Shown: one piece after another, positions 16,439 through 61,925 of the stretch | Numbering within the stretch: position 1 is the first letter of the stretch | Layout of the letters: each line of letters starts with the position of its first letter | NCBI GenBank assembly: GCA_017792345.1 | Contig: CP051228.1 | Coordinates: forward strand, 3,378,148-3,442,147 | Direction of reading: 5' to 3' | DNA: 64,000 bases | DNA from: Mesoflavibacter sp. | GTDB taxonomy: Bacteria > Pseudomonadota > Alphaproteobacteria > UBA8366 > Aestuariispiraceae | Made by a program: the position numbers and the translations under genes | The notes under the pieces: generated by a model | Told to the model about the DNA's origin: nothing | Databases searched by the model: none | Seen by the model: the letters and a program-made list of their open reading frames with translations, nothing else

Positions 16439-16767
16439 TATGCTTTCCTGATTAAATCTAACCGAGTATTGCCCGCGCAAAGTTGGCAATGCAATGCAAA
16501 ATAGTGAATCTGTTTTTGCCGCGTCCCGGTGCTGCCCTTCCCTGCGCGCGATGCGGAAGAAGGTGGGTGGGAAGGCGGCTTTGCCGGGCGTCGCGGGCTT
16601 GACGCGCCGGGAAATTGGGCATAGAACCCGCGCCATATCAGGCAGTGCAGCAGCACTCGGTCCCAAGGGGCCCCGCCGGTCCGCGAGTTTCGCGCACCGG
16701 CGCGTTTTGCGTTGTGACCTGTCCGATCCGCGCGCGCACGCGTTTTTGAATTGGGTTCGAGGTACGG
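16439..16767. other. Divergent intergenic region between the XRE regulator and ffh
   Basis: The 329 bases hold no credible gene. The part nearest the XRE start is AT-rich and contains overlapping direct repeats (GCAATGCAATGCAAAA near 16486-16501), possibly an autoregulatory site. A sigma70-like promoter for ffh lies at 16599-16627 (listed separately). I looked for the conserved SRP RNA core (GGAAGGAAGCAGCC type) because ffh follows, and did not find it. Confidence 0.6.
16599..16627 (+). promoter_or_regulatory. Predicted sigma70 promoter of the ffh operon
   Basis: TTGACG at 16599-16604, a 17-base spacer, then TAGAAC at 16622-16627. The -35 matches consensus at 5 of 6 positions and the spacing is ideal. 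It reads towards ffh, leaving a leader of about 130 bases. No alternative of equal quality is visible nearby. Confidence 0.5.
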
Positions 16768-45428: not shown

Positions 45429-46193
45429 TCAGGAATCGAACCGATCGAAGATTTCGCGCAGATAGGCGTCGGGATTTTCCAGGAACCGCCGGGTGATCCG
45501 GTAATGGCCGGTTTCCCGATAATCCGCCAACCGGATCGTATCGCCCTGCAGATAGTACAGGTCTGCATTCGGATAGGCCATCAGGATCGGCGAATGGGTC
45601 GCCATGATGACTTGGGCTTCCCCGGATTCTTCCAATGCCCGCAGAATGGCGAGCAGCTCTATCTGACGCTGGGGGGACAGGGCGGCTTCCGGTTCGTCCA
45701 GGATGTAAATGCCCTTGCCGCCGAACCGGTTCTCGAAAAGCGATAGGAACGCCTCCCCATGGGACTGCCGGTGCAATGAAGAACCGCCATAGGATGCGTA
45801 GGCGGCGGAGCCCGCATGGCTCGACATCTCGTCCAGATAGCCGGCGAAGTTGAAGAAGCTCTCGGCCCGCATGAAGAAGCCTTGTGCCACCTTCGGCCGC
45901 CACGCGAAGGTCAGAGCCTTCGCGAGGGGGGCGACATCCGCCGTTTGGTCATAGACGTGATCCCGGTTGCCACCGCTGACATTGAAGCCGCAATGGTAGG
46001 CGATCGTCTCCAATAGGGTCGATTTGCCGGACCCATTCTCGCCGACGATCACGGTTACAGGCGTGGAGAAAGTCAGGTCGAGGCCGTCCAGGATGGGCAA
46101 GCTCAGTGGATATTCCGCCCTGTCCTTCGGCGGTTCACGAAAGTACACCCGCTTTAGAAAAGGGGCCTGGAGCCCAAACTCGCCTGCCGCCAT
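45429..46193 (-). CDS. AAA/ABC-type predicted ATPase (COG3910-like)
   Basis: 254 residues. Walker A VIVGENGSGKSTLLETIAYH, ABC-signature-like SLHRQSHGEAFLSLF, Walker B GIYILDEPEAALSPQRQ and switch His in MATHSPILM. This is the SMC/ABC-like single-domain ATPase group of COG3910, found alone or in defence and overcoming-lysogenization (OLD)-like settings. It follows the giant SIR2 gene on the same strand after a 147-base AT-rich gap. A functional link is possible but not shown: the gap is long enough for its own promoter. Confidence 0.85.
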   Translation of the reverse strand: MAAGEFGLQAPFLKRVYFREPPKDRAEYPLSLPILDGLDLTFSTPVTVIVGENGSGKSTLLETIAYHCGFNVSGGNRDHVYDQTADVAPLAKALTFAWRPKVAQGFFMRAESFFNFAGYLDEMSSHAGSAAYASYGGSSLHRQSHGEAFLSLFENRFGGKGIYILDEPEAALSPQRQIELLAILRALEESGEAQVIMATHSPILMAYPNADLYYLQGDTIRLADYRETGHYRITRRFLENPDAYLREIFDRFDS

Positions 46194-46340
46194 GCCGGGG
46201 AAGTCCCCTAAAGTCTTCGATCATCATATCGCGCCAGTCGCCGATTAAGAGGCTCCGAGCAAGTGAACAAAAAGAGTATAAAAAATAATTCTATCGTTCA
46301 AGAGCAGAGCACGACGGCGGCTTTCCAGGATGTCTTGACG

Positions 46341-49300
46341 TCAACCGGCCGTATTGGCGAGGCTGTTCTCAATCCGGTGTACTTCGATCTGATTGCCATA
46401 ATATTTTGCCGCATTGAGGTTCGACCGGAACATGGACAGGGCCTGATCCTCCAACCCGCGCAGACGCAATATTCGGGCATAGGTCGTGATCGCGGCGAGC
46501 TTTCTGAGTGTCATGCCATGACGCGAACTCAACTCGATCGAGCGGATGGCAAGATCGCCGGAGCGCGTTGATTCACCTTGCCTGCTCAGGATATCGGCGC
46601 GCATCCGGTAGGCGGATGCAGTCAGGGCAGGCATGTTCATCGTCTTTGCATATCGAACCAGATCGGTGATCTGGGATCCGGATTGCGTGACGAACCGATG
46701 GTTCGCGACAGTTCCCTCGGTGTTCGACAATTCAAGCTTCAGTCTCGACAGGACGGCCCAGTTCCGCAGGTCGATATGGCCGCCGGCTTCGGCGAAGGCA
46801 ATGGATTCTCGCACAAGGAGTTTCGCCGCATCATAATCCCGCGAGCGGCGTTTGATGTCAGCCTTCAACCTCGTGATGATTGACATCGCCCGTAGGTCTG
46901 AATGGTTTTCGCTGGCCAGTTCGTAGGCTTTGTCGAGCAGCGTTTCCGCATGTGGCGGATTTCCTTGAATGTGTTCGATCAGCGCCAGATAGGTGCAGGC
47001 GCAATAATGCGTGGGGCTTTCCTTGTCGTCGTTTTCGAATGTGTGCCGCTGGATCGACGAAAGCCGGTCTTTCGCCGCTTTCAGTTCGCCGCGCGTGATC
47101 TGCGTGATGGCAAGGTTCAGGGACATGGAATTGTGTCTGGCGCCGCCCGGACCGTCGCCTTCTATTTTCCGGTTCACCTCCAGCGCATAACGGAACATGT
47201 CCGCCGCCTCGATGGCGCTGCCCTGGACCAAGCTTGCGATACCGCATTCGTTACACAGCCAGGCGATGTCGTCGATATAGAGAGCCTGAAGGTTCGCCCG
47301 ATCCTTGCTACGGTCCTGATTGCGTTCGTTCGGCGCCTGTTTGGCGGACAGTTCCCATGCCTTGCGGATGATCCAGCGTATTTGCTGCCGATAGGATTCA
47401 AAAAACCCCTCCGGAGGACCATCCTCGGCCGGAAGCCGGGTGTAATCCTCGAACCGGGAAACCAGTGAAATCGAAAAGCTGGATCGCGCGATAGCCAACG
47501 CGGCGCGCAGGGCCTGGACTTGCGTCGGATGGTCGCTTGTTCCCAGATGCCAGTTCTCTCCCGGGCGGTGCTCCGGCCCGATATCCGGGGCCTGGCTGAG
47601 GCCGGCCACCAGGCGCCGCAGGAACCTGTAGGCTTCGTAGGTCGGCCTGGGCAGGTCGCTTTCCATTGACGAGTACAAGGTCGGGAAGAAGCTGTGGGAT
47701 TCCGCGGGCCGCTTCATCCCGGCCCCCAACTTCTTCATGAAGTAACCATGCAGGGTCCGGTGCAACGCGTACCGGAACTGCATGGCGGGATCGAAACTCA
47801 CCGCCCGCCTTTCCAGATTGTCGACCGTGCAAGGCTCCATTTTCTTAATTTCAGCCGCGATGTCGGATCGGACATACCGCGCCAAGAGGCCGGGCTGCGA
47901 CGCGATCCTGAATATCAACTTGCGTTCGACCAGGGCGTTGAGGGCCGCGACCAGATGTTCCACGCGGGATCCGGTCTTGATGGGCGTTTCGTCGAAATAG
48001 GCCCGGATATCCGGCATGCGGACCAGAACATCCGCGCTGCAGGGCCCCCCCACGGCACCGACATGGCGCAGAATTCTGCGGTGAAGATCAATGTCCCAAG
48101 CCGCATCCGCGCGTTTGCTGAGCGACTGGTACGTGTCCAGCACCGTCTCCAACACAACGTCCTCGCGGCTGTTGTCTCCGGAAACACGGATCTGGTTGCG
48201 CATGCGGCGAATGAAATCCTCGGCCGCGTCGGCGGCGGCGGTCAAGCCGATCACCGGATCTCTTCCGCCGTTGATCCGGGCCAGAGTGGCCTGCGCCACG
48301 ACGTCTGCGGCGGCCATGATGATTGTCAGGAGATAACGGCTGCCGCCGAGGGCGTTGCGGATTTCAACCCATTCCTCGCCGTCGGCCAATCCGGCGTCGC
48401 GGTTGTCAGTCGTGAGGTAACGCAGTTGCAGCAGTTTCCGGAGATGTTGCTGTTTGAGCCAGTCTCGTGAGGAATGGATTTGCTTGTGCGCTGCCTTATA
48501 GGCAAGCACTTCAAGCTGCAAAAACTGACTGTCGTCTTCCAGAATATGATCGACAAACCGCCCTAGGCTCGTGTCTTGACGTCTCCTCAGGTTTTGGGGA
48601 AGGGGAGCGAATGTCCGACCGGACCGGCGGGAATTCGAAAAGAAACCGCTCAAGTCTGACAGTGTTTTGGGATCACAGATACCCGCATGAGACTCGGACC
48701 AAGCCATCAACGCTTTCGAGAACAGCAGAACCGCCAGCGCGGGAAACTCGTCCGTCAGGACCACATCCGGCCGGAATGGCTTTACCATGTGCAGGAAATG
48801 CGCCTTTGTCGTGTCTGGGATGTCGCCGATATCCGCGAGCGTCTCTTTTGGTAGGTTCAATAAGCGGACGCGGTTGGCTACGTTGTTGAGGCCGCTGTCC
48901 GGGATGTCGCACCTGTCGATCAGGGTATAGATCGGGTTGTCGATGAACCGTGTCGGCAGCCGTTCTTCGGCGCTTATGGTGACCAGGTCAAAAGGTGTGT
49001 CCGAGACTTCAGCGGAGTATAGAAGGGTCAGAATGTCCCGGATCTCCCGGGTTTTGGCGGCGCCATCGGGCGCCTGAAGCAGGTCGGTGCCGCTCAGACA
49101 GATTAGTATCCGTCGGCGATACGGTTTTTGATCGGAAGCAGCTTTCGTGGCAAGTTGACACCATTCTTGCAGCAAAGTCCGGAGTGCGGCGACGCGCGGC
49201 AGATGCCGCAGTTTCTCCACGTGATACTTCCGGCATTTTTGCTGGAAACTCTTACGATTCAGAAATTTGTCCGCCCAATTTTCCGCAGTCTCTGTGTCGA

Positions 49301-52300
49301 TTGGATCGCGTAGAAGGGCGAATGCCATCCGAGGGTCTGGACCGGGCTTTTCTTTGCTGACGGACACCATTTCCCGAAGGGCGATCAACTCATCGCCAAT
49401 GGCGTTCGCAAGCTGGTCCCAGGCGGACGCGACTTCCTTTGAGTAACTGAAATTGATGAAAATCGCCGTGCCGTAATGTGGCACTTCGTGGCCGCTCCAG
49501 GATTTCTCGATGAAATCCCCAATTCCATCTTTGTTATCGAAAGCCGAAAAAAAGGAACCGCGGCCACCGCCTTTAGGAACGGTAACGATATAGCTTCGAC
49601 GTCCGGGTGTCAGACGCCGTGGTCGCCGCGAGATGGCAGCCGCCTCCGCGGCGTCGAGAAATACCGAAAAGGCGGGATCGTGTTGCTTGTCTCCCCGTAC
49701 TGCGCTGCAGCCCTCGGTTTCGCCACCGGTTGTCACGACACGGTGGCGCGAATAGATCACCGGCAATTCAGTTTGCCCATCCTGATTGGGGTTGCGCAGT
49801 TCCAGCAGAGCTGTGCGGCGCGGTGGCGCCAGCCGCCAGTTTTCAAGCCAGATCTTGGCTTCCTGCCGGATCAGGTCGAGGGTTGCGCACATCGCGCCGG
49901 TAAGGATCGATCCGTAGCAACCGTTCAGCCCGATCTCGATCGCCCGCAATTCGCGCAGGGCGCTTCGTACTTTGCCAACGCCGGCGTTCTTTCTTTTGAA
50001 CGCGCCGCTGTGTGACGTCGAGAAGTTCAATGACAGCGCAAAAAGGCGGGAAATCAGTGCCCGCTCCACGCCGAGGGCTTCCGGCTGCCCGGCTATGTCC
50101 GGTTCCGAGTAAAGGGAGTGACGTGCATAGACAAAGCGCGGGGCGGCAAGTTCCCTGATTCTTGTATCGGCGTTGATCTCGGGATCGTTTGACAGGCTCC
50201 CGAACAGCACGGACAGAGCATCGACTTCCCGAGCGGGGTTCTTAGGGTCAACCGCAATCTTGCCCAGTTTTTCACGCAGTTTTTCGAGCAGCTTGGCTTC
50301 GTCCGGTGCCTTCGCAAGTTCTGGGCTTTTGCCGGTCTGGTCCGGCCCGAACTCTTTCGACCGGGCGATCAGATACTTGCGAGCATCGTCGAATGCTGAC
50401 TTCAACTCCTTGATGAACAGATTCATCAGATGGAGCCATTCCACCGAAACCGGAGTTACTTCGCCGTTATCCTCTAGCGTTAGTGTCGCTCGGCCGTAGA
50501 ATGTCGTCTGCACGCCGTATCGCAGATAGAGAGACGTAGCCAGCTGTGCTTGGGAATCTTCCGGATCTGTTGCCGGCAACAGGACAATTGCCGTCCGTTC
50601 GGACAGGGCGTCGCGGTCGCTCATGAACTGGCGAAGGGGGCGCAGCAGATCACCTTCGCTCATACCCAGTCCGACAAACAGCAGTGGCTTGGATGAGAAG
50701 GCGAGGCGGATGGCCTCGTTGGTCGTGTCGCGATGCCGGTCGTTCTGCAGATAGAGCTGCATATAGGACCGTTCCGTCAGGACGATGTCGGATTCCGCCG
50801 TGGCGTTTCCATGTAGATGGTAAACCCCGCCACGCTGCGGCGGCGACCCGACCATGAACTCGGTCAGCTTGGCGGAGTGTTTTCGGTCGAAGGTCAGGTC
50901 GACGAAGGGTCGACCGATTGTGTCGAACCGGTGATTCTCGAATTCGTCCGCCATTTTCCTGGCCGGACGGAATCCCTGATCCAGAAACAGGCGTTCAATT
51001 TCCAGGTCATAATTGGTGGTCAGGAAACGTTCGATCCCTAAGGAACCATGCAGTTTTTCAATAGGATCCAGGTCCGCGTCGATCAGGCTGCGGCGCCCTT
51101 CGTAAGCGGCCGGATCGATGGGAGCCCAGATCGGTGATCCGGACGGGGACGCCCGCCAACCGTCTTTGATCCATTTGAGCGGGTCCGGATGCAGCGCAAA
51201 CAGCATCTCGAACACGAACCGGTGCGTCGGGGAAACGAAGCGACGTTCAATTTGCGGTTTGCCCGCTGGCTTAAGATTTCTGTCAAGTTCGCCTTCGACG
51301 AGATCGAGAATGCTTTCCCACCTGGTTCCTGGGAAATTCCGCGTAGCTCTGATTCCTTTAATCAAAGCTTTGAACGAGTTGGTATGGAAGAATCCCAGGA
51401 TATCAAATGCTTCTGGTTTGGTGCGAACCTCGTTGGCATCCGCCGCTGTAGAAATCAGAGGTTCCTTGGCGGTTCTGAACAGTTCGAAGAACTCATTTTC
51501 CCGCGTCTCGCGATTATCTCTGGCCTTAACTTGCTGCCAGTGTTCCCGACCGTATTCCGGGAGATAAAGAACACTGTTACGAACAATCAACTCAGCATGC
51601 GCCCGCTCGTCTAGGGTCATCCGCTTTGTCACTTCCGTGAAGGGGAAGTCAATTGGATCGAATGCCAGTGTCTCCGCCAGCGTATCGCGGGCGGCGAGAA
51701 ATTCCTCGCGGCGGGCGGTCCTTGGTACTACGTTTTCCGTCAGGCTGGAGAGGTCTGGAAGTAAAATGCTGGACGGCGTCCGCGCGTTTATCTTGTCATC
51801 TGTCGGGAACAGCGCGACCGCTTCTCTCAGCGCTTCGTACAGTTGCTCCATTGCCTGAAACCGGACCGGGGCACCTTCCCCGATGGATTTGTTTTCCTTC
51901 GAGACGGCCTTGAGGGTTTTTTGCAGTCTTTCGATGTGGCGCAAATGGTGGCGGATCAGGTGGCCGCCGACTTCTAGTCGTTTGAATCGCGCCTTGGCCT
52001 CGTTGTTCCAACTGTCGGTGCCCTCGTCCTTAAGGGCACCTTGAAGCTCCACGACATAGTTCAGTGCAGCATTGGCGCAGGCCATGAAATCCTTGGACAG
52101 CCGGTTGACTCGTCGTTTCTGGATCGTGTCCAACTCGCCCCAGCCCACCCGGCCATAAGCCATCGGCACGCCGCTGCCGACGAAAGCGACCAGCGACTTC
52201 TGGTTGATCGCCTGAAACAGCAACTGGTGACCGCGGGCTTCGATCAGCCCCGGGTCAAGTGTCGCGTCGATCGTGCCGACGGAGTAAGGCCAGTGCTTCA

Positions 52301-52421
52301 GTTCCTCATGCGTGTCGTAAACGCCGCCCCCCGCGCCTTCCGATTCCGCCAAGCCGCCTGAAGTTTCGGAAATCTTTTCTGAATTCTCGCCCGAACTGTC
52401 CCCGGAATTGTGGTCGGTCAC
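46341..52421 (-). CDS. Giant SIR2-STAND-TPR protein, putative antiphage NADase
   Basis: 2026 residues, GTG start. SIR2 fold in two parts: FVGSGVP at 80-86, then, after a 370-residue insertion, FLTTNYDLE (467-475), YHLHGNA (534-540, putative catalytic His537) and LLFVGLG (580-586). A STAND-like NTPase core follows: Walker A-like PKGGGRGSFF (949-958, Arg in place of the usual Lys) and Walker B-like RRILICLSGTDLL (1103-1115). Residues 1650-2026 are TPR-like helical repeats. This order (NADase-switch-sensor) is that of Avs/DSR-type abortive infection proteins. Stretches around 51.2-51.8 kb are clearly AT-richer than the neighbours, suggesting acquisition. Activity on NAD+ and the trigger are unknown. 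Confidence 0.85.
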   Translation of the reverse strand: MTDHNSGDSSGENSEKISETSGGLAESEGAGGGVYDTHEELKHWPYSVGTIDATLDPGLIEARGHQLLFQAINQKSLVAFVGSGVPMAYGRVGWGELDTIQKRRVNRLSKDFMACANAALNYVVELQGALKDEGTDSWNNEAKARFKRLEVGGHLIRHHLRHIERLQKTLKAVSKENKSIGEGAPVRFQAMEQLYEALREAVALFPTDDKINARTPSSILLPDLSSLTENVVPRTARREEFLAARDTLAETLAFDPIDFPFTEVTKRMTLDERAHAELIVRNSVLYLPEYGREHWQQVKARDNRETRENEFFELFRTAKEPLISTAADANEVRTKPEAFDILGFFHTNSFKALIKGIRATRNFPGTRWESILDLVEGELDRNLKPAGKPQIERRFVSPTHRFVFEMLFALHPDPLKWIKDGWRASPSGSPIWAPIDPAAYEGRRSLIDADLDPIEKLHGSLGIERFLTTNYDLEIERLFLDQGFRPARKMADEFENHRFDTIGRPFVDLTFDRKHSAKLTEFMVGSPPQRGGVYHLHGNATAESDIVLTERSYMQLYLQNDRHRDTTNEAIRLAFSSKPLLFVGLGMSEGDLLRPLRQFMSDRDALSERTAIVLLPATDPEDSQAQLATSLYLRYGVQTTFYGRATLTLEDNGEVTPVSVEWLHLMNLFIKELKSAFDDARKYLIARSKEFGPDQTGKSPELAKAPDEAKLLEKLREKLGKIAVDPKNPAREVDALSVLFGSLSNDPEINADTRIRELAAPRFVYARHSLYSEPDIAGQPEALGVERALISRLFALSLNFSTSHSGAFKRKNAGVGKVRSALRELRAIEIGLNGCYGSILTGAMCATLDLIRQEAKIWLENWRLAPPRRTALLELRNPNQDGQTELPVIYSRHRVVTTGGETEGCSAVRGDKQHDPAFSVFLDAAEAAAISRRPRRLTPGRRSYIVTVPKGGGRGSFFSAFDNKDGIGDFIEKSWSGHEVPHYGTAIFINFSYSKEVASAWDQLANAIGDELIALREMVSVSKEKPGPDPRMAFALLRDPIDTETAENWADKFLNRKSFQQKCRKYHVEKLRHLPRVAALRTLLQEWCQLATKAASDQKPYRRRILICLSGTDLLQAPDGAAKTREIRDILTLLYSAEVSDTPFDLVTISAEERLPTRFIDNPIYTLIDRCDIPDSGLNNVANRVRLLNLPKETLADIGDIPDTTKAHFLHMVKPFRPDVVLTDEFPALAVLLFSKALMAWSESHAGICDPKTLSDLSGFFSNSRRSGRTFAPLPQNLRRRQDTSLGRFVDHILEDDSQFLQLEVLAYKAAHKQIHSSRDWLKQQHLRKLLQLRYLTTDNRDAGLADGEEWVEIRNALGGSRYLLTIIMAAADVVAQATLARINGGRDPVIGLTAAADAAEDFIRRMRNQIRVSGDNSREDVVLETVLDTYQSLSKRADAAWDIDLHRRILRHVGAVGGPCSADVLVRMPDIRAYFDETPIKTGSRVEHLVAALNALVERKLIFRIASQPGLLARYVRSDIAAEIKKMEPCTVDNLERRAVSFDPAMQFRYALHRTLHGYFMKKLGAGMKRPAESHSFFPTLYSSMESDLPRPTYEAYRFLRRLVAGLSQAPDIGPEHRPGENWHLGTSDHPTQVQALRAALAIARSSFSISLVSRFEDYTRLPAEDGPPEGFFESYRQQIRWIIRKAWELSAKQAPNERNQDRSKDRANLQALYIDDIAWLCNECGIASLVQGSAIEAADMFRYALEVNRKIEGDGPGGARHNSMSLNLAITQITRGELKAAKDRLSSIQRHTFENDDKESPTHYCACTYLALIEHIQGNPPHAETLLDKAYELASENHSDLRAMSIITRLKADIKRRSRDYDAAKLLVRESIAFAEAGGHIDLRNWAVLSRLKLELSNTEGTVANHRFVTQSGSQITDLVRYAKTMNMPALTASAYRMRADILSRQGESTRSGDLAIRSIELSSRHGMTLRKLAAITTYARILRLRGLEDQALSMFRSNLNAAKYYGNQIEVHRIENSLANTAG

Positions 52422-52517
52422 GTGCCCTGCCCCTACTCATGTCTCCCGGGAAAATTGTAGGGGTCGAAGAAGGGATAAACAATATCGGATTGGTTGATGG
52501 AGCCCGTGGATGGAAGG

Positions 52518-52556
52518 TTATGGAAAATTCCATAATGGATAGATCAAAACCTATCC
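52518..52556. promoter_or_regulatory. Two adjacent palindromes between the SIR2 gene and the diguanylate cyclase
   Basis: TTATGGAA-AA-TTCCATAA (52518-52535) is a perfect 18-base palindrome apart from its two-base centre. One base later GGATAG (52537-52542) and CTATCC (52551-52556) form a second inverted repeat. They lie in the AT-rich 247-base region between divergent genes, a good place for an operator controlling either or both. I could not fix promoter boxes. Confidence 0.5.
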
Positions 52557-52668
52557 GGGGCGTGGTAGGCGCGGCAGGCGCGGCCGGCACGAAGTTTTGG
52601 TTGTTCCCACCCCGGTTCTGTGATCTCAACACCCCGCCCGGGAATGGTGTCGGTGGAATGAGAAAAAC

Positions 52669-54126
52669 ATGGTCGATTGGAGCCGTCCGAAATCAGTGCG
52701 CGCGCCGCTGATTGCGATCATAGCCGTCATTCTCGTCGCGGGGTTCTCCGTAACGAATCTTGTCAGCTATTACGTTTCCAAGACGGAAATCCGTGCGTCG
52801 CTGGCGAACAGCGAACTGCCGCTGACCAGCGACAATATCTATTCGGAAATTCAGCGTGATCTGCTGCCGCCGGTCTTTGTGTCCTCGGTCATGGCCACCG
52901 ACACATTCGTCCAGGACTGGCTGAGGAAGGGCGAACTCACCCCGGCCGAGATGACGCGGTATCTCGATGAAATTCGGCGGAAGTACGATTTCTTTACCAG
53001 CTTCCTCGTGTCGGAGAGATCCCGGAAATACTATCATTTCAGTGGGATATCACAGGTGGTCTCGGAAGATGACAGCCGGGATGAATGGTATTTCCGCGTC
53101 CGGTCGCTCGATCAAAGTTACGAGCTGAATGTCGATTTCAATGAAGAGCAGGGCGATGCTCTGACGATCTTCATAAATTACAGGGTCGTCGACGAGACGG
53201 GCGAACTCCTCGCCGTAACCGGTGTCGGATTGGACGTTCAATCGGTGTCGAAGATCGTCGACCGTTACAAGGATCATTTTGGACGCCACGTGTACTTCTT
53301 GGACGAACGCGGAAACATTCTGGTTCGATCCGAGGGGGCAACCCTGACCGAGGCGAACATTGCCTCGGCCGCCGGTATCTCGGTCATCGCCGAGGATGTC
53401 ATGGCGACGGAACATGGCGGCTTTGAGTATGAACGGGACGGGGAAGTCCTTCTGTTGAGCACGCGCAACATTCCCGAACTGAAACTGCGCGTACTGGTCG
53501 AGCAGAGCGAGAGCGATGCGTTGGAGGGGATTTTTCAATCCACTCTCACGAACCTGATCGTCGGTCTCGCGGTCATTATGGTGACGTTGCTGGTCGTCGT
53601 CGTCGCCGTGAACCGGTTCCATTCCCGTTTGGAGTGGATGGCCACAAGGGACAGCCTGACAGGACTGGTCAATCGCGGTGTGTTCGACGCGTCCCTCGAA
53701 AGAGAAACCAAGCTGCTGAAGCGCGATCCGACGCCGTTCAGTCTGATCCTGTTCGATATCGATCACTTTAAGCGGATCAACGACGGCCTGGGGCACCTCA
53801 ACGGCGATCGCATTCTCCAGGCGGTGGCGAAGGTCACAAGTCACGCGGTTCGGGATTCGGACCTTTTGTGCCGTTGGGGCGGCGAAGAATTCGTCATCCT
53901 CGTAAGTGATTGTGACGTCGATTCTGCCATGGCCAGGGCGGAAACGATCCGGACGTCGATAGAGGAAAGCGCGGAGATTCACCGCATCGGAGAGGCGGCG
54001 GTCACGGTCAGCCTCGGTGTGACCGAGGCCCGCGTCGGCGATACGCCGGACGACATATTGGCACGTGCGGATAAAGCTCTCTACGAAGCGAAAGAGCAGG
54101 GGCGAAACCAGGCTTGCCGCGCCTGA
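52669..54126 (+). CDS. Membrane diguanylate cyclase with extracytoplasmic Cache-like sensor
   Basis: 485 residues. TM1 (LIAIIAVILVAGFSVTNLVSY), a periplasmic Cache-like domain to about 285 (YHFSGISQVVSEDDSRDEWY, LLAVTGVGLDVQSVSKI), TM2 (LIVGLAVIMVTLLVVVVAV) and a GGDEF domain with active RWGGEEFVIL. An inhibitory RxxD site (RDSD) lies five residues before GGEEF, so feedback by c-di-GMP is expected. The N-terminal signature DSLTGLVNRGVFD is complete. It probably makes c-di-GMP in response to a small ligand. It diverges from the SIR2 giant; no functional link is shown. Confidence 0.92.
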   Translation: MVDWSRPKSVRAPLIAIIAVILVAGFSVTNLVSYYVSKTEIRASLANSELPLTSDNIYSEIQRDLLPPVFVSSVMATDTFVQDWLRKGELTPAEMTRYLDEIRRKYDFFTSFLVSERSRKYYHFSGISQVVSEDDSRDEWYFRVRSLDQSYELNVDFNEEQGDALTIFINYRVVDETGELLAVTGVGLDVQSVSKIVDRYKDHFGRHVYFLDERGNILVRSEGATLTEANIASAAGISVIAEDVMATEHGGFEYERDGEVLLLSTRNIPELKLRVLVEQSESDALEGIFQSTLTNLIVGLAVIMVTLLVVVVAVNRFHSRLEWMATRDSLTGLVNRGVFDASLERETKLLKRDPTPFSLILFDIDHFKRINDGLGHLNGDRILQAVAKVTSHAVRDSDLLCRWGGEEFVILVSDCDVDSAMARAETIRTSIEESAEIHRIGEAAVTVSLGVTEARVGDTPDDILARADKALYEAKEQGRNQACRA

Positions 54127-54191
54127 TTGAACCAACTGCCAAACTGTCCCTCATGGATCGTGTCGCCGCAGAGAGCGGTGAGGCGCTTCTT

Positions 54192-54262
54192 GCCCGACAA
54201 TCTCGGATTCGAACCAACGCCCCCTGCCTCTAGAAGGCACACGGTGCCGTGTTGGGTCGCCC
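54192..54262 (-). ncRNA. tRNA-like fold or tRNA remnant
   Basis: On the minus strand a TTCGAATCC T-loop core (plus GGATTCGAACC at 54204-54214) with a 4-of-5 T-stem, a hairpin GCCT-TCTAG-AGGC, a hairpin ACACGG-CA-CCGTGT and a closing CGAC/GTCG pair occur in cloverleaf order. The acceptor stem is only 4 bp, the D-arm is too short and no CCA is encoded, so it is not a normal tRNA. It may be a decayed tRNA or att-like scar at the edge of the srf-like operon, or chance. Confidence 0.3.
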
Positions 54263-54398
54263 GAAGTGAGGCGTAAGTCGGGCCGATATGGCATTGCGAT
54301 ATCGTCGTCGGCTGGGGGAGGGGGATATCATCCGGTCCCTCGGGCAACTGATTATGGCGATCGGCGCAGCAAGTGAAGTTTGTATAACACCGGGCTTT

Positions 54399-54426
54399 TC
54401 TCCTGACAGGAGATAGATTGTATGAT
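54399..54426 (+). promoter_or_regulatory. Probable regulated promoter of the srf-like operon
   Basis: TCTCCTG-A-CAGGAGA (54399-54413) is a perfect palindrome with a one-base centre. TATGAT at 54421-54426 matches the -10 consensus at five of six positions; the -35 region at correct spacing falls on the left arm of the palindrome (weak match). This overlap is what an operator would do. The start codon at 54470 leaves a leader of about 35-40 bases. Confidence 0.4.
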
Positions 54427-54469
54427 TTGTTAGACTGCTCGGTTCCGTCGTCATGTGGGGAGGGTGCGT

Positions 54470-55573
54470 ATGGAACGGCTCGTTGTGGCCATCGCGTCCC
54501 TGACGTTGCTTTTGATTGTTTTCTTCGGATTCGCCCTTCTTTTGCCGGCATGCGGCATAATTTCTGTATTGCCCTGGTGGAACGATTATTGCGCGGTGCA
54601 GGAAGCGGACGCGGCGGAGCGCGGTGCGGCGCTGGATCACGAGCGTGCCGCGCTGGAAGGAGAGATCCGCGCCCTTGAGCGTGAGATTGCCGCGCTGGAA
54701 TGTACGCCCGAACAACCGTCTCCAGCGCCGGAACCCGAGCCACCGCCGGAGCAGGAGGCCCAGGTCGAGCCGCCTCCAGAACCTGAACCGACGCCTCCGC
54801 CGGAGGAGGACCTCGCCGAGGCCTGCGAACCGGATCAGAAGGCGGTGCGTCCTTCTGAAATCATGTTCGTTCTGGATACGTCGCGCAGCATGCGGGATTC
54901 CATTGACGTGCCGGCATCTCTGCAGCGCGCCGAGGCGGAGAAGGTCAAGGAGATCGACGCGCTGGCCGCTCAACTGGAGCGGGGCAATGTCTTTGCGGCA
55001 GTGGGCCTGGCCGCGGCGCAATCTCAAATGGAGGATATTCAGCGTCAGATCGACCGGGTGCCGGGCGAACGTCGGATTACAATCGCGCGTGAAATCGCCA
55101 TCGACGCAATCGAGAAGGCACCGGAAGACATCACCATCGGCCTTGTCGATTTCAACGAATGCCGCGGTGAGTATCATGGGGCGTTCTCTGCGGCGCAAAG
55201 ACCCGCACTGACCGCGCGTATCAATAATCTAAGCACCGAGAACCCGACGGCGCTGGCGGCCGCCGTACAGGAGGCCGGCCGGCGCATGCAGGGCGGTCAG
55301 ACGCCGGACGATTACGTCAACATGGTCGTCCTGACGGATGGCGTGGACAGTTGCGGCGGCGATCCTTGCGCCGCGGCCCGGGCGGCGAAGGCGGGCCGGC
55401 CCGGATTGGTCATCAATGTCGTCGATCTGTCGGCCCTGACAGTCGCCAAATGCATGGCCGATATCACAGGCGGTTTCTACAATCGCAAATCCGATGGGAT
55501 GGATCTCGCCGATCTTGCGCGGTCGATGCGCGAGGCGGCGGGGTATGAGGGAGAAGGCGTGTGCAGAAACTGA
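54470..55573 (+). CDS. Membrane-anchored von Willebrand factor A protein (srf-like operon)
   Basis: 367 residues. N-terminal membrane helix (VVAIASLTLLLIVFFGFALL, 5-24), PACG turn (26-29), a short coiled coil (EGEIRALEREIAALEC, about 63-78), a Pro/Glu-rich linker (79-118) and a vWA domain at 130-360 with MIDAS motif DTSRSM (136-141), VDFNECRG and VLTDGVDSCGGDPC. vWA domains bind partners through a divalent metal; this one faces the periplasm by the predicted topology. The chassis (TM, Cys turn, coiled coil) is shared with the next two gene products. GGGGAGGG precedes the ATG at 54470. Confidence 0.85.
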   Translation: MERLVVAIASLTLLLIVFFGFALLLPACGIISVLPWWNDYCAVQEADAAERGAALDHERAALEGEIRALEREIAALECTPEQPSPAPEPEPPPEQEAQVEPPPEPEPTPPPEEDLAEACEPDQKAVRPSEIMFVLDTSRSMRDSIDVPASLQRAEAEKVKEIDALAAQLERGNVFAAVGLAAAQSQMEDIQRQIDRVPGERRITIAREIAIDAIEKAPEDITIGLVDFNECRGEYHGAFSAAQRPALTARINNLSTENPTALAAAVQEAGRRMQGGQTPDDYVNMVVLTDGVDSCGGDPCAAARAAKAGRPGLVINVVDLSALTVAKCMADITGGFYNRKSDGMDLADLARSMREAAGYEGEGVCRN

Positions 55574-55619
55574 CATCGGCGCAATACGTGAATAGGCCAC
55601 GCCTGGAAGGAGCGAACCG

Positions 55620-57515
55620 GTGAGCGAAGAGACCTTCTTCATCGTCAAGACGAGTGTCGAAGACATGGACCTCATCGATGTCGGTGGCACGCCCGTCGTT
55701 GATAACTTCGAGGCCCTGAAGGCGGCGATTATTCAAACGGCCGGCCGCGACGCGGCGGACCTATTCGCGGAACCGGTCTATCGCCGTGGCAACGACCGCG
55801 CACCGGCAGTGATTTCCTGGTACGCCAATGTTCCCGATGACGCCCGGCCGCTGTCAGAATGCGAAGGGCAGGACCGGGACCTGATCGAAGCCAAGCTTCG
55901 GGAGCGCCTGGCGCCGCTGCTGGATGGGATCGCCGATGCCGGGGTTGGCACTATGATCGGCGCGGCCCTGCATCTGAAGGACGCCAATTGCATCTATGCG
56001 GTCGGCGGAAGGCCGATCCTGGTCAATTGGGGCATGGTGCCATCCTCCGTTGGGCTGACGCCGAATGCGCGCGGCAGACATTACGGTGCCACTCTGGGCG
56101 CCTATTTGCCGCTTGCGTCCGCTCCGCCCATCAATGCGGAGGAGTTGGGGGCACTTTCGGACCGGTTGGGGGCTCGTGCGGCTGCGGCCGAGGAGATCCC
56201 GGAAGAGCCGAAAGTCTCCGATAGTGGCGCGTCGGCGCCGAAGGCAGGCGAACCCGTTGTATCGCATGCCGGCGGCGGCGGCGGATCGGGCGAACCGCCC
56301 GCCGTGAAGGTTCGAGATGGCAGTGGCGGGCGGTGGCGCTGGATCCCACTGATCCTGCTTCTGCTGATTATGGGCCTGGTGTTGGCCTATCTGTTGATCC
56401 CCGGCACATTGCTGTATCCGCCGGAAACCGTTTCGATCAGCGGCGACGAATCCGCCCGGATCGCGGAAGAGCAGAACGATTCCCTGCGTCGGCGCCGGGA
56501 CGAATTGCAGCGTGCGCTGGACGGTGCTGTCTGTCTGGACGACGGATCGCTCAGATTTCCGGCCACGATTGACGAAGCTGCCGAGAGGGCAAATGGCGGC
56601 GCCGGAGATGCAGGCGATACGGCGACCAGCGAAGATGTCGTGCCCCCGCCCCCCGGTCGTTTGGAAGTTCCTCCACCGGACGGCTCTACCGATTCAGCGA
56701 CCGATCTCTTGAGCTTTATCGAGGCACGGACGGCCCTTGTGATTACCGAGTTTCAAGGTGGGAAAGGGTCCGGGACCGGCTTTTTCGTGGGACCGGACCT
56801 ATTGGTGACGAACGACCATGTCGTTTACGGAGCGTCCGGCGACCAGGCAAAGATCGGGAAACCGGTCGCGCTCTATGTGAAGAGCGAGGCCCTTGGCCGG
56901 GTCATTCGCGCGGAACTGTTGGCGTCGAGCGGCCAATCCAGGGGGGTCGGGCGCGACTTCGCCCTGTTGCGGGTTCCGAATGCCAACGCGCAGCATTTCA
57001 CGGTCTGGAACAGCGAGGAATCGGTGAAGCTGAAACCCGTCATCGCGGCGGGCTTCCCCAGCGCCTATTTCAAGGTCGATCAGGAAGGCCGGGCCATCCA
57101 GGATACGCAATCCGCCGCCGTTCCCGACATGGTCATTACCCAGGGTACCGTGAACGCGCAGCAGAATATCGGCGCAGAAGGGGTTCTGTCGCTGATCCAC
57201 TCCGCCGATATCTCAAGCGGGAATTCCGGCGGTCCCCTGGTCGATCAATGCGGTCGCGTGATTGGCGTCAACACCTTCGGTATCCAGGACGAGGTCACGC
57301 GCCGCTTCCTGAACTTCTCGCTGCATACCAAGGAATTGGTTCGTTTCGCGGAAAGTAAGGGGCATAAGATTCCGGGAACCGATCAGGCCTGCCAGCCTCA
57401 GGTCGCGGAACGCACCCAGCCGCCGGGCCCGGAAACGCCGCCGGAGGACGACACGCCGGCTGAGCCGGCCGAAGAAGGTTCAGACCCTGCGGCGCAAGAC
57501 GGTAAGGTAGACTGA
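55620..57515 (+). CDS. Membrane-spanning trypsin-like serine protease with SrfA-like N-terminal domain (srf-like operon)
   Basis: 631 residues, GTG start with AAGGAG upstream. Residues 1-190 form a cytoplasmic domain with the motif CIYAVGGRPILVNWG (124-138); then a Gly/Ala linker, a TM helix (IPLILLLLIMGLVLAYLLI, 242-260), a short coiled coil (NDSLRRRRDELQRALD, 286-301), and a chymotrypsin-fold protease at 365-580 with triad His400 (VTNDHVV), Asp446 (GRDFALL) and Ser536 (SGNSGGPL). All three are present, so it should be active in the periplasm. The C-terminal tail is Pro/Glu-rich. The N-terminal domain recurs in the next gene product. Confidence 0.87.
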   Translation: MSEETFFIVKTSVEDMDLIDVGGTPVVDNFEALKAAIIQTAGRDAADLFAEPVYRRGNDRAPAVISWYANVPDDARPLSECEGQDRDLIEAKLRERLAPLLDGIADAGVGTMIGAALHLKDANCIYAVGGRPILVNWGMVPSSVGLTPNARGRHYGATLGAYLPLASAPPINAEELGALSDRLGARAAAAEEIPEEPKVSDSGASAPKAGEPVVSHAGGGGGSGEPPAVKVRDGSGGRWRWIPLILLLLIMGLVLAYLLIPGTLLYPPETVSISGDESARIAEEQNDSLRRRRDELQRALDGAVCLDDGSLRFPATIDEAAERANGGAGDAGDTATSEDVVPPPPGRLEVPPPDGSTDSATDLLSFIEARTALVITEFQGGKGSGTGFFVGPDLLVTNDHVVYGASGDQAKIGKPVALYVKSEALGRVIRAELLASSGQSRGVGRDFALLRVPNANAQHFTVWNSEESVKLKPVIAAGFPSAYFKVDQEGRAIQDTQSAAVPDMVITQGTVNAQQNIGAEGVLSLIHSADISSGNSGGPLVDQCGRVIGVNTFGIQDEVTRRFLNFSLHTKELVRFAESKGHKIPGTDQACQPQVAERTQPPGPETPPEDDTPAEPAEEGSDPAAQDGKVD

Positions 57516-57520
57516 CGGCC

Positions 57521-58753
57521 ATGGTCGCACGGACAATCGCGCGCACGCGGCTGGACAATGTTAAGCCGCTTGGGGAACCCAGCCAGCGGACCTATGAATT
57601 CGTCGTCGGCAATGTCCGGCGGGCGCTGGGCGACCGTCATGCCGCCCTGTTCGCCGAACCCTCCAATCAGGCTGGGCTCGCTGTCTGGCAGTCGGAGCTT
57701 CCGGGTGAAATCCTGCCGCTCTCGTCTTTGTCCCCTGAAACGGCGGAAGAACTGAAGACCAAACTGGGCAAGATCGTGGCCGACATATTGGCGGTCGCCG
57801 ACGACTTCGCAGTGAAGGCGGATCCGGCGGCCCAGTCGATCGCAATCGCCTTGCGCAACGCCGTCGAGGTCCCCAGCGAGGAATGCATCTTCAGCGTGGG
57901 CGGTGCGCCGGTTATCGTGCAATGGGGTTTCCATCTGGACGTTTATGCGCCGCCGCGGGCGCTGTTGAGCCGGCTGATCCCTCCCACCCGGCCGGTGGTC
58001 GAGCCGTCTGCTAGAGACGCCGGCCCGGCCGTCGTTGCCGCCGTTGTTGCGCCTCTGCCGGAGGATGAAAAGCGTTCGGGCCTATGGGACATCCTGTGGT
58101 GGCTGGGTTGGCTGCTGCTGGCGGTTCTGATCTTCATTGTCCTTTATCTCGCCATACCGGCCTGTGGCGTCTGGCCGTTTTCTTTCCTCGACCGGTGCGA
58201 GGCATCGGTGCTTGCCGCCGACGACCCGCATGAAGAATCCGACCGCATTCAGGCCGAAATCGATGCCCTGGAACGCGCGATACTGGATCTGGACCGGCAA
58301 TGCGTCGCCGGTGGGGCTGGGACAACTGCGGAAGCCCCCGTGCAGGACGGCGCCAAGACGGTGGAGGAAGCGATCACCGAAGGCGATTCCTCCCTGCTGG
58401 CGGGGTGTTGGCAACTGGATTCCAACTACACGCTTTATGTCGACGGCGACATAAACCGCCCCCGTAAAGTTCAGGACTGGCAAGTCTGTCTGGACGAGGC
58501 GGGCGAGAATGGCACGCAACGGCTTGTCTTCGACAACGGCACGGTCTGCGAAGGAACGCTGAAATCCACGGTGACGCAGGGCGAGGACATGACCTGGGTC
58601 GACGACGCGCCGATGCAGTGCGACGATTCCTCCTTCATCGTCCGGCGAAAGAATATCTGCCGGACCTCGGCTGAGACGTCGATCCAATGCGGGTCGGTGG
58701 ATTTGGAAAGAGAGGACTCTCAACCGGTTGATGTTAAGTTGCGCCGACAATGA
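57521..58753 (+). CDS. SrfA-like membrane protein (srf-like operon)
   Basis: 410 residues. N-terminal cytoplasmic domain (1-150) with CIFSVGGAPVIVQWG (122-136), the same motif as in the protease; TM helix (WLGWLLLAVLIFIVLYLAI, 194-212); PACG turn (213-216) as in the vWA protein; short coiled coil (IQAEIDALERAILDLDRQC, 243-261); and a Cys-containing beta-rich periplasmic domain (SSLLAGCWQLDSNYTLYVDG, then LVFDNGTVCEGTL). The last domain resembles my memory of Salmonella SrfA. It starts 6 bases after the protease gene. Confidence 0.7.
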   Translation: MVARTIARTRLDNVKPLGEPSQRTYEFVVGNVRRALGDRHAALFAEPSNQAGLAVWQSELPGEILPLSSLSPETAEELKTKLGKIVADILAVADDFAVKADPAAQSIAIALRNAVEVPSEECIFSVGGAPVIVQWGFHLDVYAPPRALLSRLIPPTRPVVEPSARDAGPAVVAAVVAPLPEDEKRSGLWDILWWLGWLLLAVLIFIVLYLAIPACGVWPFSFLDRCEASVLAADDPHEESDRIQAEIDALERAILDLDRQCVAGGAGTTAEAPVQDGAKTVEEAITEGDSSLLAGCWQLDSNYTLYVDGDINRPRKVQDWQVCLDEAGENGTQRLVFDNGTVCEGTLKSTVTQGEDMTWVDDAPMQCDDSSFIVRRKNICRTSAETSIQCGSVDLEREDSQPVDVKLRRQ

Positions 58754-58817
58754 TCGAAGGCGCTGTCGGCGGCGCGGTGGCGCCTGAATGTGATGTTTTA
58801 ATGGGATCTGTTTTGCA

Positions 58818-61800
58818 ATGAAGACCTCGACACGTAATCGGAAGCTGCACGACTGGAAAGACGAGACGACGGTGGTGCCGTTCAGCGGCATTCAGTTCCT
58901 CGACTTCGGGTTCAACGCCAATGATTGTCCCTACAAGACGATGAGCTTCATCGAGCGCACAACGGAACGCTCGGCGGAGGGGGATGCGAGAACCCTGCTG
59001 GTGCTGACCGGGGACGACGATCTCGACGCCTCGATCCTCAGCGATGCCCAGCCGGATGACGAGGAGTATCAGATCAACCAGGCCAAGGCGCTGGAACCCT
59101 TCGTCGAGAAATGGACGCCTGTCCCGATGCTGCGCGTCCGGCACGGCTCCGGTCACGATTCCCAGGACCGGCATGATCCGGGCCCGACCTGCTGGGCGCG
59201 GATTTTCATCAAGGAACTGGATGAACCCGATCCCAAGACCGGCCATACGCATTGGGTCATTCTCGCCCTGGACACGACCTGCGAGACGGTCGAGGACATG
59301 CGCTTCTACCAGGCCCCCAGCCTGGAGGACGGCGAGCGGAAGTTCGAGTTCGTGGCGGATTCCGACAAGGTCGGTTGGTTCGTCAGCTGGGTCGAAGCGG
59401 ATGACAGCGGCAACACGCACGATCTGCAGGCCTGGGTCGACGAATGGCTTCTGGATCAGTTTGAGGCCGTGCAGAAAAAGCCGAAGCGGCCACGCGCCGA
59501 TGACGAAATGCCGGAACGACTGTTCGAACACTGGTCGCGGTTCTTCGCCTTCCTGAAATTGCTCGACGGCGCGATCCGATTCCCGACCATCCGATTGGTC
59601 GACACCATGTCGCGCGATCCGATCTCGGACCGGTTCCGGTACACGCCCATCGATGTCGACCTGGTTCTCGATGTCGGGAACAGCAACACATGCGGAATCC
59701 TGATCGAATCCTCGCCCGATGGCGGGTCGGTCAATCTGACCGATTGCTATACCCTGTCGCTGCGCGATCTTTCCGATCCGGTGAACCGCTATACCGGCAC
59801 TTTCGAAAGCCGGATCGAGTTCTCGGATGCCCGTTTCGGGGACGGGCGGGCGGCGCGGTCACGGTCCTTCTTCTGGCCCAGCCTCGTGCGTGTCGGACCG
59901 GAAGCAATGCGGCTGACCCGGGACGACCTCGGCACCGAGACGGTTTCCGGTCTGTCCAGTCCCAAACGGTATCTTTGGGACGACCGGCCGATGATCCAGG
60001 ATTGGCGGTTCCACAATTTCACCCCGTCCCTGGCCGAACCGCTGCCGTTGGTCGCCCGGGCGGTACAGAACGAGTTGAACGAGGCCGGCGACAATATCGA
60101 TCAGCTTGAAGCCGACGTGAAGAACAAGCTGCGGGACAAGCGCGACGTATCGATGATCCCGGCCTCGCGTCCGCGGTTCTCGCGGTCCGCGACTTATGGC
60201 TTCATGCTGGCGGAAATGTTCCTGCAGGCCTTCGTTCTGATCAACGATCCCGCGCAACGGGAGACACGACGGCAAAGTGCGATCCCACGGCGGCTCAGAA
60301 CGATCATTCTGACCTTGCCATCCGCGACACCCATTCAGGAGCAGGCGATCATGCGGTCGCGGGCCGAGGGGGCGCTGAAGCAGCTGTTCAAGGTTCTGAA
60401 ATGGCATTCGGGCATGGCGCTGAATGCCACGGTTCCGGAAATCCGCGTCGATTGGGACGAGGCCAGCGCGACGCAGGCGGTCTATATATTCTCGGAAATC
60501 AATCAGAAGTTCGGCGGGCAGATCCGTCGCTATTTCGACCTCTACGGCAAGAAGCGCAAGCGCGTTGCGGCGACGCCGACCTCGCCGGTCAACCCGAACG
60601 ATCCACCGCAGCCGTCACTGCGGGTTGCCTGTATCGATATCGGGGGCGGCACGACGGACCTCATGGTGATGACCTATCACGCCGAGGGCAGTCAGGCGAT
60701 TGTGCCGCATCAGGACTTCCGCGAAGGATTCAGGGTCGCCGGCGACGATATGCTGCGCAGTATCATTTCGCGGGTGATCCTGTCGCAGATCGTCACAGAC
60801 CTGGAGAATGCCGGCGTTCAGAACCCCGGCAATATAATGCGGGAACTGTTCGGCGGCGATGTCGGCGACCGGGATATCCGGCTGTCTCAGCAGCGCCGTC
60901 AGTATGTATTGCGCGTGCTGGCACCGCTGGCGCTGGAATGCCTGTCCTTGATGAACGGGTTGCCTGTCGGCGGTTCGGAAAGTTTCCGGGTTGGCGATGT
61001 CCTGGACCGGCTGGATACCGGAACGCTGTTGATGGATGACGACAGCGATTACCTGATCAATGCGGTCCGTAGCCGGGGGGCGGCGGACTGGAAACTGCAC
61101 GATGTCGTTATCGCGGTGCACCGCGAGGAGGTCGACGCCGCGATCCGCGACGTCATGCGCAAGCCGCTGAGCGATATGTGCGAAATCATATCCTATCTGG
61201 GTGTCGACGCGGTCCTTCTGTCCGGCCGGCCGTCCCGTCTGCCGGTCATAAGGGACATGGTGCGCGAGCATATGGTCGTCCGTCCGTCCCAACTGATTTC
61301 TCTGCACGAATACGAGGTCGGCGATTGGTATCCGTACCGAAATGTCGTCACGAACCGGGTTCAGGATCCGAAATCGACCGCGGCGGTGGGGGCAATGCTG
61401 TCCCTGATCGCCCAGAACCGGATTCCCAATTTCATGATCTACACGAACCTGCTGCATATGAGTTCGACCGCCCGCTATATCGGCCAGTTGGACAATAACG
61501 GCGCGATCAGCGACCCGAATATCCTGTTCCAGGATGTTTCGGACGGGCCGGGCAGCGCGACCGAGGCGGAAATTCAATTGTTCTCGCCGACCTTCATCGG
61601 GTTCCGGCAATTGCCGCATGAACGATGGACGACAACGGTCATCTACAGGGTCGATTTCGCCAATGAACAGGCGGCGCGTCGGCCGAAGCCGTTCCGGGTC
61701 GTCCTAGAGCGCCGAGAGTTCGATACCGACCCGGAAAGCACGGACGAGGCGCTGCGCGCCGAAGCCTTGAAAGAAGGGTTGGTCGTGGCGGAGGTCGAGG

Positions 61801-61904: not shown

Positions 61905-61925
61905 TTGGGGTGAGAGGACAGGGCG

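What the first reader, a model, noticed from the sequence alone, without database searches (positions are those of the whole stretch)
46341..52421. 2026-residue SIR2-STAND-TPR protein as a candidate antiphage NADase
An N-terminal SIR2 fold (putative His537, motif YHLHG), a STAND-like NTPase core and C-terminal helical repeats are in the effector-switch-sensor order known from Avs5 and related SIR2 defence proteins. Its size and arrangement differ from the short SIR2 proteins I know. The AT-richer base composition supports acquisition.
Basis: partly seen in the sequence, partly recalled or inferred. Interest (0 to 1): 0.85.

Follow-up and report, generated by a model that had tools for sequence, protein, structure and literature searches.

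The report
Giant SIR2-STAND-TPR probable antiphage NADase
A very large bacterial protein looks like a one-piece phage alarm: a SIR2 enzyme that would destroy the cell fuel NAD+, a worn-down molecular switch, and a repeat-built sensor; its action is predicted, not yet tested.

Summary
The 2026-codon frame at 46341-52421 (-) is real and intact. It encodes a SIR2 domain whose Asn470 and His537 are kept in 37 of 37 aligned proteins, then a P-loop NTPase/winged-helix core and a MalT-like TPR superhelix. The order is that of Avs5, but the SIR2 fold is interrupted by a helical insert of about 300 residues and the switch is degenerate: GxGKG instead of Gx4GK[S/T], Asn/Ser at the Walker-B position in 30 of 37, and the P-loop Lys is Arg in the window copy (Lys 29, Arg 6, Gln 2 of 37). 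No Avs, NACHT or nSTAND model matched the window protein. The family is rare and patchy: 41 loci in a species-level collection, 34 of them alphaproteobacterial by title. The window copy lies in a 29-kb block absent from a same-genus genome, beside tRNA-Pro. Its TPR has diverged much more than its SIR2 domain. In 10 of 41 loci an AAA+ gene lies next to or near it; the window has none. Best reading: an NLR-like antiphage NADase, a new variant of a known kind. Defence and NAD+ loss are inferred, not shown.

The parts
46341..52421 (-). whole gene, SIR2 - degenerate STAND-like - TPR protein, 2026 aa, GTG start
   Evidence: relatives
52092..52292 (-). SIR2 domain, N-terminal part (aa 44-110) with glycine motif FVGSGVP (GAGxS position)
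   Evidence: alignments; family profile aligned to SeThsA in three separate stretches
51102..52091 (-). mostly helical insert inside the SIR2 fold (aa 111-440); among the least conserved regions of the family
   Evidence: model, motif spacing, mean identity 21% to 18 close relatives
50352..51101 (-). SIR2 domain, C-terminal part (aa 441-690)
   Evidence: Pfam SIR2_2 E 1.7e-16; fold match to DSR2/ThsA
51012..51014 (-). Asn470 of TTNYD, predicted catalytic Asn
   Evidence: 37 of 37 aligned sequences
50811..50813 (-). His537 of HLHG, predicted catalytic His
   Evidence: 37 of 37 aligned sequences
50655..50657 (-). Glu589 (GLGMSEGD), possible counterpart of Avs5 Glu202
   Evidence: 36 of 37; 52 residues after the HG His here, 49 after the NG Asn in Avs5 (numbering); correspondence inferred from spacing
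49632..50351 (-). variable linker and helical region between SIR2 and NTPase (aa 691-930)
48702..49631 (-). P-loop NTPase core (aa 931-1240), STAND-like and degenerate
   Evidence: model strand/helix order; P-loop aligned with MalT Walker A at P-value 0.06; AAA_22 in 3 and NPHP3_N in 1 of 34 members, place of those matches not shown
49557..49580 (-). degenerate P-loop VPKGGGRG (aa 948-955); the Lys position is Arg954
   Evidence: Lys 29, Arg 6, Gln 2 of 37
47712..48131 (-). winged-helix region (aa 1431-1570) ending in RYALHR
   Evidence: model, conservation
47760..47762 (-). His1554, MHD-like His of the winged helix
   Evidence: 35 of 37; the MHD analogy is recalled knowledge
46344..47321 (-). 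TPR superhelix (aa 1701-2026), presumed sensor; unusually diverged in this copy

Best explanation
A single-gene, NLR-like antiphage protein. In the resting state the C-terminal TPR superhelix and winged helix hold the protein off. Binding of a phage-made ligand, most likely a protein, to the TPR and perhaps to the variable insert or linker releases the NTPase/winged-helix module. That lets protomers assemble, pairs SIR2 domains into an active form, and destroys NAD+, which stops phage production. Shown here by computation: the domain content and order, the intact SIR2 catalytic residues, the degenerate P-loop, the patchy distribution, and the excess divergence of the TPR in this copy. Inferred: NAD+ hydrolysis, ligand sensing, assembly, the antiphage role, and a switch that binds nucleotide but hydrolyses it poorly or not at all.
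For: SIR2_2 E 1.7e-16. Asn470, Asp472 and His537 in 37/37 and Glu589 in 36/37. The SIR2 part of the model matches DSR2, ThsA, KomC and the AVAST5 filament. PADLOC SIR2-effector models match members of alignment A4: ThsA 33/33, LmuA 32/33, Dsr1 30/33 at E<=0.01. The core model has the order strand-P-loop-helix, further strands, a helical region and a winged helix; the best Foldseek hit is a STAND-TPR crystal structure, 6mfv, E 2.0e-6. MalT-type TPR. Patchy distribution: 0 of 13 other family genomes, 5 of 384 other class genomes, 41 loci in genome contigs. Two plasmid copies flanked by transposase genes; plasmid RepC gene beside L038. A 29-kb block is absent from G012. TPR identity deficit of this copy 0.168 against 0.053 for SIR2, difference 0.115 with 99% range 0.052-0.179; window end branch 1.59 in the TPR tree against 0.91 in the SIR2 tree. 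Precedent: STAND proteins with C-terminal repeats in a P4 hotspot where TIR is replaced by SIR2 (PMC9122126, passages).
Against: No experiment. No relative in the phage records searched or viral contigs, so no direct phage link. Of 15 neighbouring proteins of relatives scanned with Pfam or PADLOC (664 neighbouring frames had been extracted), only one looked defence-like: a Lhr-type helicase next to L036 that matches DpdJ, SngC and BrxHI models, and such helicases are also housekeeping (recalled). No NACHT, nSTAND or NB-ARC model matched the window protein. The Foldseek E-value of the SIR2 model did not pass 0.001 (best 1.9e-3). The 6mfv match is stretched (rmsd 27 A, target TM 0.32). In the family at large the TPR is better conserved (34% to close relatives) than the NTPase (27%) or the insert (21%), which is not what a generally fast-evolving sensor would show. 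Alanine at the P-loop Lys abolishes Avs5 immunity, so this copy may be impaired or use another trigger. The long branch could also reflect relaxed constraint, and the regions and sisters compared were chosen after a first look.
Confidence: 0.65

Rival explanations
1. The SIR2 enzyme is real, but the protein answers to something other than phage (plasmid or other mobile DNA, toxin or cell damage), as a stress-triggered NADase.
For: Some copies lie on plasmids and may defend a plasmid against rivals. No phage-borne copy was found.
Against: The nearest tested protein in build, Avs5, is antiphage (PMC12931631, passages), as are DSR and ThsA (recalled). Whole-cell NAD+ loss is a typical abortive response to phage (recalled).
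Confidence: 0.17
2. The window copy is a decaying or permanently silent relic: the P-loop Lys is lost, the branch is long, and the TPR no longer binds its ligand.
For: Arg at the Lys position. End branch 1.32 against 0.35-0.46 for the four nearest rows by path. TPR excess divergence.
Against: Intact 2026-codon frame. All SIR2 residues kept. Arg also in 5 other members, including the close relative L034. The SIR2 deficit is small.
Confidence: 0.12
3. A two-gene system: the protein normally works with the AAA+ ATPase encoded upstream in part of the family, and the window copy is an orphan or uses a substitute.
For: An AAA+ protein gene next to or near the family gene in 10 of 41 loci, in both orientations, in the close clade and also in the distant members L046 and L053. 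One version carries a RyR domain.
Against: Of the other 31 loci, 30 show none at E<=1e-5 and L062 only a distant partial match; several hold little upstream sequence. None in the window, none found in its genome (a search without positive control).
Confidence: 0.15

Closest known systems
Avs5 / AVAST type 5 (Sir2-nSTAND3-repeats)
   Different: About 2000 residues against a chain of 764 in the AVAST5 structure 9nc9. SIR2 split by a long insert; degenerate P-loop (GGGRG against GPAGSGKT); no nSTAND3 match for the window protein.
DSR1/DSR2 defence sirtuins
   Different: DSR2 has about 1005 residues; no STAND core and TPR superhelix of this kind (recalled).
ThsA (Thoeris SIR2-SLOG)
   Same: SIR2 domain, family profile E 5.8e-13 to SeThsA.
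   Different: ThsA is SIR2-SLOG and answers to cyclic ADP-ribose isomers (PMC11204291, start of abstract in a listing). Here a STAND-like core and TPR follow SIR2.
TIR/SIR2-STAND-TPR proteins of P4 hotspots
   Same: NAD+-targeting effector, STAND and C-terminal repeats in one polypeptide (PMC9122126, passages).
   Different: No sequence relationship tested here; that paper's proteins were not fetched.
iSTAND / iSTAND2 (inactive STAND of MoxR-vWA ternary systems)
   Same: Eroded NTP-binding motifs in a STAND-type module of a conflict system (PMC7159879, PMC8195603, passages).
   Different: Those have MoxR and vWA partners and TIR, DRHyd, peptidase or EAD domains at the N-terminus in the passages read; no such trio was seen beside the window gene among the proteins scanned. 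The AAA+ partner of one relative (L046) only weakly resembles bpMoxR (3.3e-4, below cut-off).

Membership tests
SIR2-like NADase (SIR2_2) | SIR2_2 domain above the curated cut-off | tested here: met
   61.1 bits against 24.5
SIR2-like NADase (SIR2_2) | glycine, TTNxD and HG active-site motifs | tested here: met
   Gly82, Asn470, Asp472, His537 and Gly538 in 37/37
SIR2-like NADase (SIR2_2) | NAD+ hydrolysis | not testable with these tools
   needs a biochemical assay
STAND NTPase | P-loop NTPase core followed by helical region and winged helix | tested here: inconclusive
   fits the predicted model and the conserved His1554, 35/37; but 6mfv, the best Foldseek hit, is a stretched match, and the core could not be folded and searched alone
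STAND NTPase | canonical Walker A Gx4GK[S/T] and Walker B acidic residue | tested here: not met
   VxxxxGRG in the window; Gly at the Ser/Thr position in 35/37; position 1110 Asn 23, Ser 7, Asp or Glu 0 of 37, although 31/37 have Asp/Glu at 1113
STAND NTPase | match to a curated STAND/NACHT/NB-ARC model | tested here: not met
   none for the window protein at E<=1. Of 34 members, AAA_22 in 3 and NPHP3_N in 1; that list shows at most 25 families
Avs5 | Sir2-STAND-repeat order | tested here: met
   with the STAND part as predicted fold only; definition
Avs5 | nSTAND3 domain with canonical Walker A | tested here: not met
   no nSTAND3 match for the window protein; Arg954 in place of Lys
Avs5 | sensing of JADA or another phage protein | not testable with these tools
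   needs co-expression with phage proteins
iSTAND ternary system | MoxR and vWA partners encoded next to the inactive STAND | tested here: inconclusive
   a vWA gene (54455-55573) lies two genes away in a divergent cluster; no MoxR among the nine window proteins scanned; the part of the block beyond the window was not scanned
DSR2 | SIR2 followed by the DSR2-type C-terminal sensor without NTPase | tested here: not met
   P-loop core and TPR instead; the DSR2 definition is recalled

The most novel reading that the evidence does not exclude
A giant NLR-like NADase whose STAND switch has lost catalysis. A nucleotide-independent or ADP-locked core is opened by ligand binding alone. Ligand recognition is shared between the TPR and the insert threaded through the SIR2 domain, so that sensing acts directly on the active site. 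In some lineages an adjacent AAA+ protein supplies the missing ATP-driven step.
Probability: 0.28. Interest if true: 0.65.

Novelty: new variant of a known kind. Interest (0 to 1): 0.47.

Why it matters
If right, it extends the NLR-like antiphage sensors to 2000-residue proteins, mainly of Alphaproteobacteria, whose switch the Pfam STAND models do not recognise in the window protein. It offers a natural case for testing whether a STAND-type sensor can work without its P-loop lysine. The concentrated divergence of the TPR in this copy points to where a ligand may bind.

Tried and rejected
Family membership in Avs5 was considered and rejected on the P-loop and the missing nSTAND3 match. A domain swap of the TPR from a distant family member was considered: the five nearest rows of the window TPR are the same five as in the SIR2 tree, so rejected. 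The 254-aa AAA ATPase gene directly downstream (45429-46193) as a partner: rejected, because it is 81% identical and in the same place in a same-genus genome that lacks the SIR2 gene. NACHT proteins as a comparison set: none at E<=1e-8 in 43 order genomes, so no profile-profile test against NACHT was made. Single-sequence hhalign of the core profile to E. coli MalT aligned only the P-loop, P-value 0.06, probability under 1%, with a MalP control at 0.76: suggestive, not proof; with the TPR included it aligned only TPR, P-value 0.002. The NCBIfam match to YejF (9.3e-4, 17.9 bits against cut-off 834, residues 752-877) lies outside the P-loop and was taken as chance. Polarity of the 29-kb block (gain or loss): in the 20 kb fetched from each of two further family genomes, G001 and G002, only the symporter stretch matches, so undecided. 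No exact shared word of 11 bases or more between the two junction stretches compared. Phage records and viral contigs gave no relatives. My first neighbour count (8 partner loci) missed L029 and L035; corrected to 10 by tblastn. The tree labels partner presence with the older list, so its count of 6 partner changes is out of date.

Rows dropped before counts: of the 41 loci, 33 entered the 37-row alignment, with the window and L018, L022, L026. L032, L048, L053, L060 and L065 (split frames), L054 and L064 (partial) and L047 (same length and score as L051) were left out. L021 and L023 are the contigs of L036 and L030; L019 matches L046; these and the partial L020, L024, L025 were left out. A4 also drops L055; A5 drops L022.

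Full report
Observation. The open frame at 46341-52421 on the minus strand is 2026 codons long from a GTG, without a stop. Pfam gives SIR2_2 at residues 465-628 (E 1.7e-16) and TPR_12 near 1807-1878 (E 8e-9); nothing of STAND, NACHT or AAA type appears at E<=1. PADLOC gives weak matches, ThsA 2.6e-6, LmuA 8.4e-6, Dsr1 9.2e-6 and PDC-S25 0.0032, their best stretches all in the SIR2 part. No PDB chain matches the single sequence at E<=1.

Relatives. The gene is rare. It is in 0 of 13 other genomes of the family searched, 5 of 384 other genomes drawn from the class, and 1 of 397 others drawn from the phylum at E<=1e-20. A profile-guided scan of genome contigs gave 41 loci: 34 are Alphaproteobacteria by record title; the others are Granulosicoccaceae, Granulosicoccus, Leucothrix, Derxia, a Candidatus Binataceae MAG (L047, same length and score as an alphaproteobacterial MAG of a like-named series, so perhaps a binning error), a Bryobacter MAG and an archaeal MAG. 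A single-sequence scan of the same collection had found none. Three of 72,556 plasmid records match. The Azospirillum lipoferum and Methylobacterium copies sit among transposase genes, and in Ahrensia (L038) the gene upstream is plasmid RepC. There is no match in phage records or viral contigs.

Switch. A model of residues 840-2026 (34 sequences, mean pLDDT 81.7, pTM 0.86) shows a strand, P-loop and helix at 942-962, strands at 982-990, 1103-1110 and 1144-1151, then helices and a winged-helix-like unit at about 1444-1506. Three of 34 members match AAA_22 (best 7.9e-5) and one NPHP3_N (0.0042); where in those members is not shown. hhalign sets the P-loop on the Walker A of MalT, but with P-value 0.06 only (control 0.76). 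His1554 of RYALHR, at the place of the MHD motif of NLRs (recalled), is in 35/37. Yet the NTP-binding motifs are eroded. Gly stands at the Ser/Thr position in 35/37 and the first Gly of Gx4GK is mostly Ala. The Lys itself is Lys in 29, Arg in 6 (window included) and Gln in 2 of 37. The position after the Walker-B strand is Asn in 23, Ser in 7 and acidic in 0 of 37, although 31/37 have Asp or Glu three residues on (that 1110 is the Walker-B Asp position is my reading). The fewest changes of the Lys state on the tree are 8; the window and L034 meet in an open fork, so their shared Arg is counted twice. Eroded STAND modules have precedents in iSTAND and iSTAND2 (PMC7159879 and PMC8195603, passages), and the latter paper proposes that inactive STAND domains act as nucleic-acid receptors. 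In Avs5, by contrast, the Walker A Gly and Lys are needed.

Surroundings. A same-genus genome, G012, matches the window in stretches from 21090 (where the fetched part begins) to 46193 and resumes 29.1 kb further on, at G000:C1:3453485, beside tRNA-Pro(cgg); G012 has about 0.4 kb there. The block holds the SIR2 gene, a diguanylate cyclase, and a cluster with vWA, trypsin-like and SrfB proteins and a long protein taken as SrfC-like from its position. Whether G000 gained it or G012 lost it is open. Gene GC is 57.8% against 63.4% for window 1-46193, but 57.0% in the neighbouring GGDEF gene.

Possible partner. In 10 of 41 loci (L027, L029, L033, L034, L035, L039, L041, L043, L046, L053) a gene of one family lies directly beside the SIR2-STAND-TPR gene, or in L046 about 1.3 kb away, with a transposase gene annotated between them in the near-identical plasmid L019. 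Its products, 698-947 residues in the eight extracted, carry a weak AAA+ match in the three scanned (PF00004, E 1.6e-4 to 7.9e-3; two above and one below the cut-off) and a RyR domain in L046 (E 5.6e-15). L062 has only a distant partial match 5.8 kb away and is not counted; several other loci hold little upstream sequence. No such gene lies in the window, and none was found in its genome (no positive control). One paper in the library held all the terms 'RyR domain', bacteria, defense and AAA; its title concerns protein methylation (listing only).

Mechanism and standing. The best reading is an NLR-like antiphage NADase: sensing by TPR, release of a winged-helix/NTPase clamp, assembly, and NAD+ destruction by SIR2. 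Effector identity is strong; sensing, assembly and defence are inferred. It works like Avs5 and like the SIR2-STAND-repeat proteins noted in P4 hotspots (PMC9122126, passages), but it is not an Avs5 by the features tested. The searches and 91 of the open-access library brought up no paper that, in the listings and passages I saw, describes a SIR2-STAND-TPR protein with these features; subscription papers are not held, so prior description cannot be excluded.

Noticed in passing
L027:7698-9881 and nine other loci (L029, L033, L034, L035, L039, L041, L043, L046, L053): A protein with an AAA+ domain (698-947 aa in the eight extracted; RyR domain in L046) is encoded next to or near the SIR2-STAND-TPR gene in 10 of 41 loci; its N-terminal half matched no Pfam family at E<=0.01 in the three members scanned.
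   Followed up: partly
46194-64000 and on to L085:11337: 29-kb block absent from the same-genus genome G012, ending at the 3' side of tRNA-Pro(cgg).
   Followed up: partly
54205-54230: 26 bases match tRNA-Pro(cgg) at 25 positions (E 1e-6 in the window): a tRNA fragment inside the block, possibly an old attachment site that splits it into a SIR2/GGDEF part and an srf part.
   Followed up: partly
54455-63998 (+): Cluster with vWA protein, trypsin-like protein, SrfB (PF07520, E 1.5e-279) and a long protein running off the window, taken as SrfC-like from its position and not searched. SrfABC is called a toxin in the title of PMC6950479 (listing); role here unknown.
   Followed up: no
52669-54126 (+): Diguanylate cyclase with a dCache sensor, divergent from the SIR2 gene; homologues at 42-49% identity in 6 of 13 other family genomes at E<=1e-60.
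   Followed up: partly
L050:6323-9817: 1165-aa frame directly upstream of the SIR2-STAND-TPR gene of Rhodoplanes tepidamans, no Pfam or PADLOC match at E<=1e-5.
   Followed up: no
16659-16710 (+): Rfam ffh sRNA match, 36.4 bits against a gathering score of 35.
   Followed up: no
L020 (Methylorubrum extorquens CM4 plasmid pCMU01): Two annotated SIR2 family proteins, of about 1320 and 464 codons, on either side of an IS5-like transposase; possible SIR2 defence genes.
   Followed up: no
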